A stretch of 64,000 nt of DNA from Synechococcus sp. M44_DOE_062 (GTDB taxonomy: Bacteria > Cyanobacteriota > Cyanobacteriia > Thermostichales > Thermostichaceae), in NCBI GenBank assembly GCA_015295985.1, contig DVDX01000001.1, positions 1 to 64,000 on the forward strand. Direction: 5' to 3'. This document shows positions 48,640-54,202 of the stretch, in pieces (the first letter of the stretch is position 1; each line of letters opens with the position of its first letter). Both the position numbers and the translations under genes were made by a program. The notes under the pieces are model-generated. The model had not been told where the DNA came from and searched no databases. It saw nothing but the letters and a program-made list of their open reading frames with translations.

Positions 48640-49170
48640 TTAGCCGACATCAATCAAATCGTTGGATCCCCAGCCGGGGGCGACCTGAGCCGCTCTGAGA
48701 ATAAAGGCAGCCAGGTTTCTCAGGGCTTCGTCGTCCATCCAGGAAGGGGGCACAGGGCGGCATCCAAAGCTGGAATCCGAACCATCGTAGCTACGGGGAT
48801 CCCGCTGATACTCCATCAAGGCTTGGAGAGTATCTCGGGGTGGAGTGGCACCGCGCAAGTCCCTCAAAGAGAGGGAAATGTTGGGAGCTGGCAGGGTGGC
48901 ACCGCCCACATGACAATTCAAGCAGGCAGACTGAAAACGATTTTTGCCATCCGTGAGCTGCTCTGGGGTAAAGGTGAGGGTGTGCCCTGCAGCATCTAAA
49001 GGCAATTCCACCGGGCCACTCACCCGCAAATACTGATTCACGTAAGGATCAATACGAGCCGCCACCGGACTGGCCAGCCCCAGCCACAACAAAGCCAGGA
49101 TCCCGACCCAAGACCAGAGGCGAGACGGGATCCGCCAACTCGTAGGCAACTTGCAATGCAGATGCGGCAT
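48640..49170 (-). CDS. psbV2: PsbV2-like cytochrome c (c550 paralogue)
   Basis: 176 residues. The ATG shares one base with the psbV stop (TAATG), so translation is coupled. An N-terminal signal peptide (WVGILALLWLGLASPVAARI) targets the thylakoid lumen. A single haem site, CLNCHVGG, is followed by LRDLRGATPPRDTLQALMEY as in PsbV. Where PsbV has its distal haem ligand His (LLEYHPN), this protein has FGCRPVP, with Cys near the position. The PsbV2 of Thermosynechococcus was reported to have an unusual His/Cys-ligated, low-potential haem. The function is unsettled; it may partly replace c550 in PSII. Confidence 0.85.
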   Translation of the reverse strand: MPHLHCKLPTSWRIPSRLWSWVGILALLWLGLASPVAARIDPYVNQYLRVSGPVELPLDAAGHTLTFTPEQLTDGKNRFQSACLNCHVGGATLPAPNISLSLRDLRGATPPRDTLQALMEYQRDPRSYDGSDSSFGCRPVPPSWMDDEALRNLAAFILRAAQVAPGWGSNDLIDVG

Positions 49171-49712
49171 TAGAGATAGGCCGATAGGTCGCTGTGGCTT
49201 TCATTCTTGGTACCGCCCCAGCCGGGGATGGTCTTGGCCTGCACCAGAATGTAGCCTGCAATCAGCTTCAGATCCTCGTCAGTGAGGTTGCGCAGACGAG
49301 GATACTCACTGATGAGCTGCGTGTTGGGGTGATACTCCAGCAGAGACTCCACTCCGTCATAGGTGACCGGGTTTTTGATGTAATCCACAATTGCCAGCAC
49401 ATTATCCCGTGGGGGAGTTGCCCCCTCGAGATCGGAAAGCTTCAAGCTCACATCCGGGTTGGGATAGGTCTGGCCGCCCACATGGCACTGGGCGCACGCA
49501 GCGTTGAACAGCTTCTTCCCTTTGGCCAACTGGGCTTCGGTAAAGGTAATGGACTCAGTTGGCGACAGAGCTACCGCAGGAATATCTTTAGCTGCGAACA
49601 CCGGAGCTAGACCCCAGCCAAACCCGGCCATCAATACAGCCAACAGCAGGACAAGCAACCGACGACGCGCTGGCGCAAACACCTTCTGAAAAGAAAAAGC
49701 TTTGCTAAACAT
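49170..49712 (-). CDS. psbV: PsbV, cytochrome c550 of photosystem II
   Basis: 180 residues. The signal peptide (RRLLVLLLAVLMAGFGWGLAPVFA) cleaves before KDIPAVALSP, the mature start. The haem site is CAQCHVGG; the distal ligand His is in LLEYHPNTQ; the C-terminal half LRNLTDEDLKLIAGYILVQ and PGWGG are conserved. It is an extrinsic lumenal subunit that stabilises the Mn cluster of PSII. It is the first gene of a psbV-psbV2 unit on the minus strand. Confidence 0.95.
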   Translation of the reverse strand: MFSKAFSFQKVFAPARRRLLVLLLAVLMAGFGWGLAPVFAAKDIPAVALSPTESITFTEAQLAKGKKLFNAACAQCHVGGQTYPNPDVSLKLSDLEGATPPRDNVLAIVDYIKNPVTYDGVESLLEYHPNTQLISEYPRLRNLTDEDLKLIAGYILVQAKTIPGWGGTKNESHSDLSAYL

Positions 49713-50041
49713 GGTTCTCCGTAGATCAGCCTAGAAAGAGGAGAGGTGGGCTCCACTCCAGCCACAAACCCGACACCAGGATCAAGAATAGACCATCAAG
49801 AGATCATTTGCAGAGGGGATCCAAAATAGTTTCCCAATGGTTCTATTTGCCTTGATGTTAAGTTTGATTGCGGAGCTATGGCCTATTGGTTGGGAGTCTG
49901 TTGGCCGGGAGCTGATTTGGTCACAGCCCGGTCGAGGCTGGGGAAACTGAGCAGGTAATATAGAGCTTGGCTTGCTTGCCCGGCAACCTCAGAGCAGGAG
50001 AGCACGGCAGACTCCGTTCCAGGTTTTTGCAGGATTGCCCC
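49713..50041. other. Divergent intergenic region upstream of psbV
   Basis: 329 bases between psbV (minus) and the DUF4384-like gene (plus). It should hold both promoters, but no box could be picked with confidence. No RNA gene was seen. Confidence 0.35.
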
Positions 50042-50929
50042 ATGTCCTCTGTCCGATTCCAGCCGTTGCGGGTGGCTTTCACCTGTGCGGATCCCAGTCA
50101 AGTCCAAATGCCCGTTGCCGATTTGCTGGCAGCGTTGCCGGCCTCACCGCTTCTGGCCTACACAGACCCGGAAGCAGCGGACTTGCGGGTAGAGCTGCTG
50201 CCCGATGCCATTTATCACTTTTACCGGCGGGGGGAAGAGGTGGCTCTGGCAGCCTTCCGGATCCCGGTGAAAAAGCTACAGGCCCTGCCTCGCAAGCTGG
50301 TGCGGCTGTTGGAGCACGTGGCCGCCTTCGGCAACCTCTTGAATCTGCAACCTCCCAGCGAGGCGCTGAGCAGCATCTTGGAAGTGGAATTTCTCCAACT
50401 GGAAACCCCGGCCAGCAGCTCTGCCCCTGCCGAAGTAAGCCCCCTGCCGCGGGATCCCCAGGGACAGGTGCAAATCCAAGCGGGCCGCAACCTGGCCATT
50501 GCCCTGAGAAACAGAGCCCCCACCCCAGTGCATGTCTATGTCACTGTCTTTGACGAGCGGCGGTACAGCGTGGATTTGGTTTACCCCTATCAACCGGATC
50601 TGCCTGCCCGTCTGCGCCCCAGCGAGAGCCTGTTGATCGGCTCTGGCCCCCGCTACTTGCTGCAGATGCAACTGCCAGAAGGGATGGATGTAGCAGTGGA
50701 TCACTTCAAAATCTGGGTCAGCGGCACCAGCATGCAGCCAGGCATTATGGTGATGCCCCCCCTAGGGCAACGGCTAGACCCCCCCTCCGAGGATCCCTAC
50801 GGATCCGGATCCCGCCTAGATCGAGAAGTAAGGCTGGCGATTCTGGGCAAGGCAGGCAGCACTCCCATGCCGGCTTTTGCCGAGGATCCCTGGTGGTGCA
50901 TGGAACAAGCCGTCAAGATTGTGGCCTGA
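50042..50929 (+). CDS. Orphan DUF4384-like protein (C-terminal part of cyanobacterial caspase-family proteins)
   Basis: 295 residues from ATG 50042 (MSSVRFQPLRVAFTC). Resembles the C-terminal region that follows the peptidase domain in cyanobacterial metacaspase-like proteins: ALPRKLVRLLEHVAAFGNLLNL, then a DUF4384-type beta domain (IALRNRAPTPVHVYVTVFD, LRPSESLLIGSG, LPEGMDVAVDHFKIWVSG). No caspase His-Cys dyad or signal peptide is present, so it is either a stand-alone member or the surviving half of a longer gene. The upstream region shows no caspase fragments. Confidence 0.6.
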   Translation: MSSVRFQPLRVAFTCADPSQVQMPVADLLAALPASPLLAYTDPEAADLRVELLPDAIYHFYRRGEEVALAAFRIPVKKLQALPRKLVRLLEHVAAFGNLLNLQPPSEALSSILEVEFLQLETPASSSAPAEVSPLPRDPQGQVQIQAGRNLAIALRNRAPTPVHVYVTVFDERRYSVDLVYPYQPDLPARLRPSESLLIGSGPRYLLQMQLPEGMDVAVDHFKIWVSGTSMQPGIMVMPPLGQRLDPPSEDPYGSGSRLDREVRLAILGKAGSTPMPAFAEDPWWCMEQAVKIVA

Positions 50930-50959: not shown

Positions 50960-51580
50960 TTAGAGATGGTTTTTTAGAATCCCATCAAAGGTAGCCTTAA
51001 CCTCATCAACGCCGATCACTGACAGATGGTAGAGGGAAGAAAGATCGCTTCTTATATCTTGGCTAACATCAGTTAAAACCATGAAAACTTGGCTTCTCTG
51101 AAGACCAAGTTCATCAGCAATCCTGGAGTATTTCTGTATTTTATCCTGATACTCACCTGTCTTCGATTCTACCCAGTAGAATTGATTGTTGATATGGAAG
51201 AAAAGATCTATCTCAAAGTCAACTCCGTTTGACAAAGTAACTTGAGCATTTGCGATGTAAGAAAAACTGAACTTGCCGGTGTAAGCTGCAACAAGGCGGA
51301 TTAGGTTGCACCTAACATATCTTTCCAGCCAGTTTCCTGACAGAAAATTCAGCGCTTGGGGTGACCTACTGGGTCTTGCTACCAAGAGATATCTAGGTGC
51401 CCTAAAGTATCTGTACTCTTCCAAAAATGCGATGCCGTGCAACTCTTTAGCAACTTGGCAAGTTGCACTGATTACTTGTGGAGGTTCATCTCTAAGGTTT
51501 AGGGAAAAAGAGCTTCCGCTATTCATATTTGATTTAATCATTCCATAAAATCTTTTAATCAAAGAGTATCGGCTGCCCAT
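50960..51580 (-). CDS. PD-(D/E)XK nuclease-like protein, Card1/DUF1887-type nuclease domain without CARF
   Basis: 206 residues (the start may instead be ATG 51541 or 51526). The C-terminal half fits a PD-(D/E)XK nuclease: GNWLERYVRCNLIRLV (helix with the first Glu), FEIDLFFHINNQ (metal Asp), YWVESKTGEYQDKIQKY (ExK plus basic helix). This order resembles the nuclease domain of CARF-linked Card1/Can2 proteins, but no CARF domain is present. The gene is clearly AT-richer than all neighbours, suggesting transfer. It follows the membrane coiled-coil gene by 36 bases on the same strand and was probably transferred with it. Activity is inferred only. Confidence 0.7.
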   Translation of the reverse strand: MGSRYSLIKRFYGMIKSNMNSGSSFSLNLRDEPPQVISATCQVAKELHGIAFLEEYRYFRAPRYLLVARPSRSPQALNFLSGNWLERYVRCNLIRLVAAYTGKFSFSYIANAQVTLSNGVDFEIDLFFHINNQFYWVESKTGEYQDKIQKYSRIADELGLQRSQVFMVLTDVSQDIRSDLSSLYHLSVIGVDEVKATFDGILKNHL

Positions 51581-51616
51581 AGAGGCAGCTATTTGATCTA
51601 GCTTTTCCTCTTTTTC

Positions 51617-52255
51617 CTACACAGCTATACTTTTTATCTTTATGTTTTTCGAGTTTAAGAACAACTCTATCTTTGATATATCAACAGTAGCTGTTCCATC
51701 CTTGTCTCTTGGTACGTTATCTATTGACTCAGGCTCTAATGCTTTATCAATAACCTGAATAACCTGATCGCTCTGGAAATTCTGGTCTGTAGTTTGGCGT
51801 ATCTCTAATCCATGAAAACTTTGAATAGCAGACCGTAGTCGCTGATAAATATCTTCGGCTTCTTTTACTAAGTTTTCCAGAATGGCTCGTTGATTATTTA
51901 GTTGATCATCATACTCAGCTAACTTTACAGACATGGCCTGTAGAAGGTTCCTGCCCCAGTCTTGCAGCAAGCTTTGGTAGTTATCGGCAAAGCGAAATTT
52001 AAACTCTTCAAGATTAGCTTGGCCATCCTGTAGCTTTTGAGAGATTTTGTCTGCTAATCCTTCGCTCAACTTGATTAGCGCTTCGTTTGCGTCGTTAAGT
52101 TTTTGGCTATGTTGGCTTAGCTGTGAAGATATCTCTCTGATAATCTCTCGTTTCCAAATCTCTAGTTTAGGATTTTCCTTATACTGACGAGCAACGTAAA
52201 TACCTGCCGAGAAACCGATAGCTACCCCAATCAATAAAATCAAAACTAAGTCCAT
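51617..52255 (-). CDS. Membrane-anchored coiled-coil protein, partner of the nuclease-like gene
   Basis: 212 residues. An N-terminal membrane anchor (MDLVLILLIGVAIGFSAGIY) precedes a long coiled coil (about 30-160: ISSQLSQHSQKLNDANEAL, LENLVKEAEDIYQRLRSAI) and a polar C-terminus ending IELFLNSKNIKIKSIAV. GGAG lies 6 bases before the ATG. No enzymatic motif is seen. The layout, anchor plus coiled coil, recalls the front half of RmuC, with the nuclease on the next gene. Same AT-rich composition as the nuclease gene and unlike the flanks. Function unknown. Confidence 0.7.
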   Translation of the reverse strand: MDLVLILLIGVAIGFSAGIYVARQYKENPKLEIWKREIIREISSQLSQHSQKLNDANEALIKLSEGLADKISQKLQDGQANLEEFKFRFADNYQSLLQDWGRNLLQAMSVKLAEYDDQLNNQRAILENLVKEAEDIYQRLRSAIQSFHGLEIRQTTDQNFQSDQVIQVIDKALEPESIDNVPRDKDGTATVDISKIELFLNSKNIKIKSIAV

Positions 52256-52384: not shown

Positions 52385-54202
52385 CTAGGTGCGAATGAGG
52401 GATCCCAGCCAGCCTTGCTGGAGGGCTTCTTGAGCAGGAGTCAGTTCAGGCAACACCTCTAATGTGTAGACATCGGGCCGAGGGGGATCCAACGGGATCC
52501 AAAAGTGTTTCAACTGATCCGCTTGAAAAACGCTCAAACAAATGATCTGGTGGGGCTGATAGGCCGCCAAGCGTTCTGACAAGTTAGCAGCGCTTACCCG
52601 GAAGCCATCCAGGGCCACCAGCTCATCGCCGGCCCAGATGCCTGCTTTTTGCGCCGGGGATCCCATCTCTACTGCGCTAATGCGATTGCCCTCGCCGTTG
52701 AAATTGAGGCCTAAGTAAGGGCTGGGGTTAGGGCGGCTGAAGTGGGCTTTGAGGGTGAGGCCAAAAGGGTGTAGGTAGGCATTGTAGTCCAGCTCTTCTG
52801 TGCCTTCCACATAGGCTGCGAAAAACTGCCCAAGTTCGGCACCGGCTGCCCGCTCAAACGCCTCCCGCAAATCTTGATCGCTGTAGCCCTTCCCTGACTG
52901 ACCAAAGCGCTGCCACAGATCCTGCAATGCCGTGTCCAGGGATCCCCGACCGCCGGAAAGGTGGCGAATGTGCAGATCCAGGAGCCAACAGACCAAAGCT
53001 CCTTTTAAGTAATAAGAAACCTGGCTATTGAGGCTGTTTTCGTGGGGGCGGTAGAGTTTGATCCAAGTGTCGAAGCTGGATTCCCGCAGTGATTGCACGG
53101 CCCGGCCCGGAGTACGCTGCAAGCGGCCAATCTGTTCGGAAAGAACCTTCAAAAAATCGTTGGCACTGAGGATCCCTGACCTCAACAAGATGACATTTTC
53201 GTAGTAGCTGGTCGCCCCTTCGCAAAACCACAGACATTCCAGATAGTTTTCTTGGTTGTAATCGATCTTTTCCAATGGCAGCGGACGCAGACGCTTGACA
53301 TTCCAGGCATGAAACAACTCGTGGGCCAGCAAAGACAAAAAGCGCCGATACTGCCCCGGCTGATGCAGCTCTAGCCCAGAGTAAAGAAGGGTGGTGCTGT
53401 ACTTGTGCTCAAGGCCACCAAATCCTCCCGGTGACAAATGCACAATGAACCAGTAACGGTCGTAGGGTAGCCCACCAAAAAACGCGGCTGTGGTTTTGAC
53501 AATGACCTTGGCATCAGCGACAGCCCGATCCACATCCAGAGTGCCCGCCCCCCAAACCACAAAGTAATGGGGGATCCCTTCCACCTCAAACGATTGCATC
53601 CGATGCAGACCCACCTCCACCGGACTGTCCACCAGCTCGTCGTAGTCTTCTGCCACAAAAGACTGGCCGGAAGTGGGATCCCCAGAAGGAGAGGTCAAAG
53701 GTCGCAAACTGGTGGCGATGCGCCAATCCGGCTTGGGGGGGATCACCGTCAAGGTGTAAGGTTCCCGCTCGCGACCGGGCACGTAGAGGAAGAGCGCTGC
53801 CCCGTTGAAATAGGCGTGGGTCAAATCCAGATGGTTTGTGCGCACCGTCAGCTCATAGGCATAGACCCGGTAGCCCACCTTCACGGCAGAACAGCCCGGC
53901 GGATCGATCTGCCAGGTGTTCTTGTCCACCTTCCGCCAGGCCAAAGGGATCCCTTGCTCGGTTGCCGCCTGAAACTCCTGCACATGACGGGCATATTCTC
54001 GCACCAGGTAGGATCCCGGCGTCCACACCGGCAGCCGCAGCCGCAAAGGCATCTTGGGATCCACCTCTTGGAGCAGCAGCTCCACCTCCAGCAGGTGATT
54101 GGCCGGATCCGGCATCCGCACCGTGAAATGCTGGCGGCTCAGTCGAGAAGATGCAGCAACAACGGCCTCCGGGATCCCCATAGATAGAATGTTCCAACCC
54201 AT
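52385..54202 (-). CDS. M61-family metallopeptidase with PDZ domain
   Basis: 605 residues. The M61 N-terminal beta domain (VWTPGSYLVREYARHVQEF, NHLDLTHAYFNGAALFLYV) is followed by the zinc site HELFHAWNVKRLRP with the downstream Glu in CEGATSYYENV. A C-terminal PDZ domain starts near residue 500 (PYLGLNFNGEGNRISAVEMG to DELVALDGFRVSA). M61 enzymes are glycyl/acidic-preferring aminopeptidases. No clear signal peptide is seen. It is divergent from ntcA, sharing the gap with the NtcA box. Confidence 0.9.
   Translation of the reverse strand: MGWNILSMGIPEAVVAASSRLSRQHFTVRMPDPANHLLEVELLLQEVDPKMPLRLRLPVWTPGSYLVREYARHVQEFQAATEQGIPLAWRKVDKNTWQIDPPGCSAVKVGYRVYAYELTVRTNHLDLTHAYFNGAALFLYVPGREREPYTLTVIPPKPDWRIATSLRPLTSPSGDPTSGQSFVAEDYDELVDSPVEVGLHRMQSFEVEGIPHYFVVWGAGTLDVDRAVADAKVIVKTTAAFFGGLPYDRYWFIVHLSPGGFGGLEHKYSTTLLYSGLELHQPGQYRRFLSLLAHELFHAWNVKRLRPLPLEKIDYNQENYLECLWFCEGATSYYENVILLRSGILSANDFLKVLSEQIGRLQRTPGRAVQSLRESSFDTWIKLYRPHENSLNSQVSYYLKGALVCWLLDLHIRHLSGGRGSLDTALQDLWQRFGQSGKGYSDQDLREAFERAAGAELGQFFAAYVEGTEELDYNAYLHPFGLTLKAHFSRPNPSPYLGLNFNGEGNRISAVEMGSPAQKAGIWAGDELVALDGFRVSAANLSERLAAYQPHQIICLSVFQADQLKHFWIPLDPPRPDVYTLEVLPELTPAQEALQQGWLGSLIRT

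What the first reader, a model, noticed from the sequence alone, without database searches (positions are those of the whole stretch)
50960..52255. AT-rich two-gene cassette: membrane-anchored coiled coil plus CARF-less Card1-like nuclease
Two adjacent minus-strand genes (36-base gap) are visibly AT-richer than everything around them. One encodes an N-terminal membrane anchor and coiled coil (51617-52255). The other (50960-51580) has a GNWLERYV / EIDLFF / ESKTG series like the PD-(D/E)XK domain of CARF nucleases (Card1/Can2, DUF1887), without the ring-nucleotide sensor. Together they look like a split RmuC, or a membrane-tethered nuclease with possible anti-phage or DNA-processing function. 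No such named pair is known to me.
Basis: partly seen in the sequence, partly recalled or inferred. Interest (0 to 1): 0.75.

Follow-up and report, generated by a model that had tools for sequence, protein, structure and literature searches.

The report
Broken membrane-anchored Can2-like nuclease gene
What looked like two neighbouring genes is one gene cut in two by a stop codon; intact relatives, scattered across many bacterial phyla, encode a predicted DNA/RNA-cutting enzyme closely related to CRISPR-linked nucleases whose usual alarm-molecule sensor has been replaced, in this branch by a membrane anchor and coiled coil.

Summary
The AT-rich stretch, the two ORFs, the membrane anchor, the predicted coiled coil and the Card1-like nuclease are all there. 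The two-gene cassette is not. The ORFs lie in one frame, separated only by an in-frame TAG (51617-51619). A same-genus genome carries one uninterrupted 435-aa gene at the same place, another a 374-aa version, and a third has an empty site. A predicted structure puts the TAG inside a folded module (residues 194-428) that matches the whole post-CARF half of Can2 (Z 18.9), Cdn1, VC1899, Card1 and Can1, with the catalytic ExD/ExK residues kept.

The window therefore holds a nonsense-interrupted copy (or a sequencing error) of a CARF-less Can2-type nuclease. The intact family is patchy (31 of 390 cyanobacterial genomes; many other phyla; one archaeon), horizontally transferred, usually AT-rich, and has no conserved partner gene. 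Three cyanobacterial members carry the module inside VMAP-MoxR-type conflict systems. Most likely function: a membrane-tethered effector against mobile elements, activated by something other than cyclic oligoadenylate. Activity, trigger and defence role are inferred. RmuC is not supported.

The parts
50960..52255 (-). One reading frame (431 codons, one internal TAG, then the final stop): N-terminal anchor, coiled coil, CARF-less Can2-type nuclease module. Interrupted gene, not two genes.
   Evidence: Continuous frame; uninterrupted 435-aa and 374-aa orthologues at the same place in G004 and G001.
51617..51619 (-). In-frame TAG at codon 213, inside the folded module
   Evidence: only stop inside the domain among relatives in 390 genomes apart from a natural terminator in G008; model has a strand at 206-210 and a helix at 217-228.
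52190..52255 (-). Predicted membrane-anchor helix, about residues 1-22
   Evidence: Best 19-residue mean hydropathy 2.57; helix 2-26 in the model at moderate confidence.
51806..52171 (-). Long helices, residues 29-150, predicted coiled coil
   Evidence: Model helices 29-76 and 82-150, pLDDT about 70-85.
50972..51676 (-). Post-CARF module, residues 194-428: small domain plus PD-(D/E)XK nuclease
   Evidence: pLDDT mostly above 90; Can2 Z 18.9, Cdn1 17.6, VC1899 15.8, Card1 12.3, Can1 11.4.
51206..51214 (-). Catalytic E348-x-D350
   Evidence: Invariant in 32 sequences; aligned with the ExD of Can2, Cdn1 and Card1; SthCan2 E276/D278 needed for activity (PMC7969007).
51161..51169 (-). Catalytic E363-x-K365
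   Evidence: Invariant in 32 sequences; aligned with the ExK of Can2, Cdn1 and Card1.
52385..54202 (-). Upstream neighbour: M61 glycyl aminopeptidase, not part of the feature
   Evidence: Pfam; marks the conserved site in all six genomes of the genus.
49967..50929 (+). Convergent neighbour without Pfam match; with the M61 gene it bounds the site that is empty in G003. Start uncertain.

Best explanation
One accessory gene, present at this site in three of the six genomes of the genus, encodes a membrane-anchored, coiled-coil, CARF-less Can2-type nuclease; in this genome it is interrupted by an in-frame stop codon and probably no longer works (shown by comparison, barring a sequence error). In intact relatives the N-terminal helix would hold the protein at the inner face of the membrane and the coiled coil would bring copies together, taking the place of the CARF dimer of Can2/Card1. 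A signal at the membrane, or oligomerisation, would then open the nuclease cleft so that it cuts DNA and/or RNA, limiting an invading phage or plasmid (inferred from the fold, the transfer pattern, and use of the same module in VMAP-MoxR-type conflict systems).
For: Same frame with a single TAG; uninterrupted orthologues at the same site, 88% DNA identity through gene and flanks; TAG is a normal terminator of five of nine neighbouring genes and the second ORF lacks a Shine-Dalgarno-like sequence. High-confidence module matching the complete post-CARF part of Can2, Cdn1, VC1899, Card1 and Can1; invariant ExD and ExK. Hydrophobic N-terminal segment in 28 of 61 relatives. Patchy, cross-phylum distribution with up to 89% core identity between phyla. 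Module inside VMAP-C/AAA-linked proteins (PMC7159879).
Against: No experiment on any member of this lineage was found. No conserved partner and no defence island in the window. The nearest intact copy reads ESR at the catalytic lysine, and the three FGE-fused copies have lost it. No relatives in the phage, plasmid or viral collections. The trigger is unknown, and membrane topology and dimerisation were not tested.
Confidence: 0.62

Rival explanations
1. The TAG is a sequencing or assembly error and the organism carries an intact single gene like its relatives.
For: Draft assembly of 90 contigs; a single in-frame stop with the rest of the frame conserved and low dN/dS in both parts (0.33 and 0.19).
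Against: No direct evidence of error; accessory genes often decay, and other copies in the family are also broken or degenerate (L068, L086).
Confidence: 0.2
2. A genuine two-gene cassette: a separate membrane coiled-coil protein and a separate nuclease that work together.
For: Both ORFs have start codons, and the nuclease ORF keeps its catalytic residues.
Against: Relatives with the anchor are single genes; the TAG cuts inside the folded module, so the second ORF lacks its first helices and strand; no ribosome-binding sequence before the second ATG.
Confidence: 0.04
3. The TAG is read through or recoded, giving a full-length protein.
For: The frame downstream is intact and conserved.
Against: TAG terminates several ordinary genes in the same window; relatives have no stop there; no recoding signal was looked for.
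Confidence: 0.03
4. The intact protein is an ancillary effector of type III CRISPR that works without its own CARF domain.
For: 29 of 31 genomes with the gene match the Cas10 palm2 model, against 184 of 359 without it, Fisher p about 2e-6; a Cas1-type gene next to L082 and two Csx1-type genes next to L087.
Against: The Cas10 model is unspecific (it also rings in E. coli) and lineage was not controlled; two genomes have the gene without a match (G016, G343); nearly all loci have no cas neighbour; no CARF to sense cyclic oligoadenylate.
Confidence: 0.12
5. A housekeeping DNA-processing protein of RmuC type rather than a defence effector.
For: Shared outline of membrane helix, coiled coil and nuclease; the genome has no RmuC match of its own.
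Against: No RmuC profile match; the structural match is to Can2/Card1; patchy presence, absence in three of six genomes of the genus, and transfer between phyla do not suit housekeeping.
Confidence: 0.06

Closest known systems
Can2 / Card1 / Cdn1 / VC1899 (DUF1887, PF09002): CARF plus PD-(D/E)XK effectors of type III CRISPR
   Same: Entire post-CARF module by fold (Z 12-19), ExD and ExK active-site motifs, weak but consistent PF09002 match.
   Different: No CARF domain; an anchor and coiled coil (or other front ends) instead; not in a CRISPR locus in the window.
VMAP-MoxR-vWA ternary conflict systems (PMC7159879)
   Same: Three cyanobacterial relatives carry this module in a large protein with an FGE domain, next to VMAP-C and AAA genes.
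   Different: The window gene has no such neighbours or domains; the three embedded copies have lost the catalytic lysine.
RmuC (PF02646)
   Same: General outline only: membrane helix, coiled coil, nuclease-like domain (from general knowledge of RmuC).
   Different: No profile match in the ORFs or the genome; fold match is to Can2/Card1.

Membership tests
Can2/Card1 (DUF1887) CARF nucleases | C-terminal PD-(D/E)XK nuclease module with ExD and ExK | tested here: met
   Fold match and invariant catalytic residues.
Can2/Card1 (DUF1887) CARF nucleases | N-terminal CARF domain | tested here: not met
   Residues 1-190 are a hydrophobic helix, long helices and a low-confidence linker; PADLOC CARF-nuclease models match only the nuclease part.
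Can2/Card1 (DUF1887) CARF nucleases | Located in a type III CRISPR locus | tested here: not met
   Neighbours in the window are ordinary genes and no CRISPR-like array was found in the window. Some relatives do have CRISPR-type neighbours.
Can2/Card1 (DUF1887) CARF nucleases | Activation by cyclic oligoadenylate | not testable with these tools
   Needs biochemistry.
RmuC | RmuC domain (PF02646) | tested here: not met
   No match at E up to 1 in either ORF; none in the genome.
VMAP-MoxR ternary system | Adjacent VMAP and MoxR-type ATPase genes | tested here: not met
   Not among the window's neighbours; met for relatives L063, L066 and L067.
Two-gene membrane/nuclease cassette | Two separate genes that recur together in other genomes | tested here: not met
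   Relatives are single genes; no recurrent neighbour in PADLOC scans of 184 neighbouring proteins.

The most novel reading that the evidence does not exclude
The CARF-less Can2 lineage is a broad, uncharacterised family of sensor-swapped nuclease effectors: the module that CRISPR uses under cyclic-oligoadenylate control is elsewhere placed under a membrane anchor and coiled coil, a presumed extracytoplasmic sensor, a short N-terminal helix, or a VMAP-MoxR system. The membrane-anchored branch would be a new stand-alone anti-phage system that detects events at the membrane.
Probability: 0.35. Interest if true: 0.7.

Novelty: new variant of a known kind. Interest (0 to 1): 0.45.

Why it matters
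Can2 and Card1 are known as CRISPR effectors switched on by cyclic oligoadenylates. A widespread, horizontally moving lineage that keeps the whole effector half but lacks the sensor would show that this nuclease is a general effector module with interchangeable inputs, and it gives directly testable candidates for new defence systems. For this window it corrects the reading: the pair is one broken gene, so it should not seed a 'two-component' family. Searches of the held open-access library found no paper describing CARF-less members; that covers only part of the literature.

Tried and rejected
RmuC reading: no profile match. Defence island around the window: the nearest genes are YlxR, an HD response regulator, two cytochrome c550 genes, M61 peptidase, a Crp/NtcA-type regulator, enolase and prolyl oligopeptidase. 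Conserved partner gene: none seen among 184 neighbouring proteins of relatives (only PADLOC families were scored there). CRISPR arrays near relatives: none found with a simple exact-repeat scan, which could miss short or divergent arrays. Viral, phage and plasmid collections: no relatives. Cas10 co-occurrence: strong on paper but the model is unspecific and the test not controlled for lineage, so not relied on. An alignment of all ten first sequences was too divergent to scan with and was replaced by a closer set. Matches of the middle part to ribosomal protein S8 (Z about 7) are in the range the tool calls common and were set aside.

Full report
1. The observation. The two ORFs are at the stated coordinates on the minus strand, 36 bases apart. 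GC over 50960-52255 is 0.397; no sampled non-overlapping window of the same length in the 64 kb is below 0.473. The first ORF begins with a hydrophobic helix and the second carries a Card1-like nuclease match.

2. It is one gene. The 36-base gap is a multiple of three, and translating straight through gives a single protein broken only by one TAG at codon 213. In G004, a genome of the same genus, the same place holds one 435-aa ORF, and the DNA aligns at 88% through the gene and both flanks. In G001 it is one 374-aa ORF between the same neighbours. In a profile search of 390 cyanobacterial genomes only the window's copy has a stop inside the domain; the stop flagged for G008 is its natural end. 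TAG is a normal terminator here: five of the nine surrounding genes listed end with it. The first ORF has an AGGAG sequence shortly before its ATG; the second has none. The simplest reading is a nonsense-interrupted gene, or a sequencing error; I cannot tell these apart without reads.

3. What the protein is. The window frame, read through with the TAG as glutamine for folding only, was aligned with 31 relatives and modelled. Residues 194-431 are mostly above pLDDT 90. This part matches solved structures of Cdn1, VC1899 and Can2. In the second alignment model residues 194-428 lie on Can2 141-365 (Z 18.9, rmsd 2.9 over 198 residues); Cdn1 gives 17.6, VC1899 15.8, Card1 12.3 and Can1 11.4, and the next rows fall to about 7. 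Can2's CARF domain is residues 3-151 and its nuclease domain 166-366 (PMC7969007), so everything after CARF is present and CARF is not. E348-x-D350 and E363-x-K365 are invariant in the alignment and align with ExD and ExK of Can2, Cdn1 and Card1; the E276A/D278A variant of Can2 is inactive (PMC7969007). In front lie a membrane-type helix (about residues 1-22) and long helices (29-150), the latter a predicted coiled coil. The TAG falls between a strand (206-210) and a helix (217-228) of the folded module, so the second ORF alone lacks its first elements.

4. The intact family. Relatives occur in 31 of 390 sampled cyanobacterial genomes and in 33 named loci that include Chloroflexi, Proteobacteria, Bacteroidota, a spirochaete, Meiothermus, Clostridia, a planctomycete (Gemmataceae), an acidobacterium and a Methanobrevibacter. 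Many of these are metagenome-assembled genomes, where stray contigs are possible. Copies in different phyla can be very close: 89% core identity between a cyanobacterium and a spirochaete, 87% between that cyanobacterium and Meiothermus, which indicates horizontal transfer (with the same caution about binning). The gene is AT-richer than its own surroundings in 47 of 54 cases, so the low GC noticed here is a family trait rather than a recent local event. In the genus it sits between two convergent genes that lie about 100 bases apart in G003, an empty site.

5. Changing front ends. Of 61 relatives, 28 have a membrane-type segment before the module, 27 of them in the cyanobacterial sets. Most others begin with a short LLERIAxALERIA-like helix. 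Three have a hydrophobic segment at about residue 200-240 in addition to one near the N-terminus, with a presumed outer domain between (L070, L071, L073). Three carry the module inside proteins of more than 1000 aa with a C-terminal FGE domain, next to VMAP-C and AAA genes: the layout of the VMAP-MoxR ternary conflict systems of PMC7159879. Those three copies have lost the catalytic lysine.

6. How it probably works. Shown here: the gene structure, the distribution and the sequence motifs; predicted: the fold and the anchor. Inferred: the anchored protein faces the cytoplasm, pairs through its coiled coil in place of the CARF dimer, and opens its nuclease cleft on a membrane or assembly signal, cutting nucleic acids of an invader or of the host. 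I give 0.62 to the combined statement. That the two ORFs are parts of one ancestral gene I take as above 0.95.

7. Rivals. A real two-gene cassette (0.04), read-through (0.03), sequencing error (0.2), a type III CRISPR ancillary role (0.12) and RmuC-like housekeeping (0.06) are set out in their sections; some concern the state of the gene and others its function, so they are not exclusive. The CRISPR link rests on an unspecific genome-level association (29 of 31 against 184 of 359) and two loci with CRISPR-type neighbours.

8. State of the gene in this genus. One copy is intact with ESK (G001), one is open but reads ESR at the catalytic lysine (G004), one carries the TAG (window), and three genomes lack it. 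dN/dS between the window and G004 copies is 0.26, above the 0.10-0.14 of the two flanking genes, and dS is higher as well (0.41 against 0.20-0.25). This looks like an accessory gene that is gained, decays and is lost.

9. Verdict. The window copy itself is ordinary gene decay. The interest lies in the intact CARF-less Can2 lineage, a new variant of a known kind.

Noticed in passing
L063:2217-5492, L066:6202-9453, L067:7875-11351: The same module sits inside proteins of more than 1000 aa with a C-terminal FGE domain, next to VMAP-C and AAA (MoxR-like) genes; the catalytic lysine is replaced (ECF or ECQ), so it may be a dead or binding-only version.
   Followed up: partly
L070:7316-9283, L071:6573-8330, L073:6092-7867: Members with a presumed extracytoplasmic sensor between two hydrophobic segments, then a coiled-coil-like stretch and the nuclease; the gene next to L071 encodes a MacB/FtsX-type exporter subunit.
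   Followed up: partly
L002:814-2121 (G004): The intact orthologue closest to the window reads ESR instead of ESK in the catalytic motif and may be inactive.
   Followed up: no
L068:6904-8219, L086:7791-8774, L072:7479-8102: Further copies that are split over two frames or pieces (L068, L086) or start late (L072), suggesting repeated decay in the family.
   Followed up: no
L044, L051, L052, L055, L059, L060, L061, L064, L065, L104, L106: A C-terminal extension of roughly 145-215 residues follows the nuclease in many members; its fold was not examined.
   Followed up: no
cyanobacterial genome sample: Genomes with this nuclease nearly always also match the Cas10 palm2 model (29 of 31 against 184 of 359); unspecific model, lineage not controlled.
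   Followed up: partly
window 48640-49712: Two tandem cytochrome c550 genes (psbV-like pair) on the minus strand.
   Followed up: no
L087:8973-11557: Two adjacent Csx1/CARF-HEPN genes beside the Methanobrevibacter copy.
   Followed up: partly
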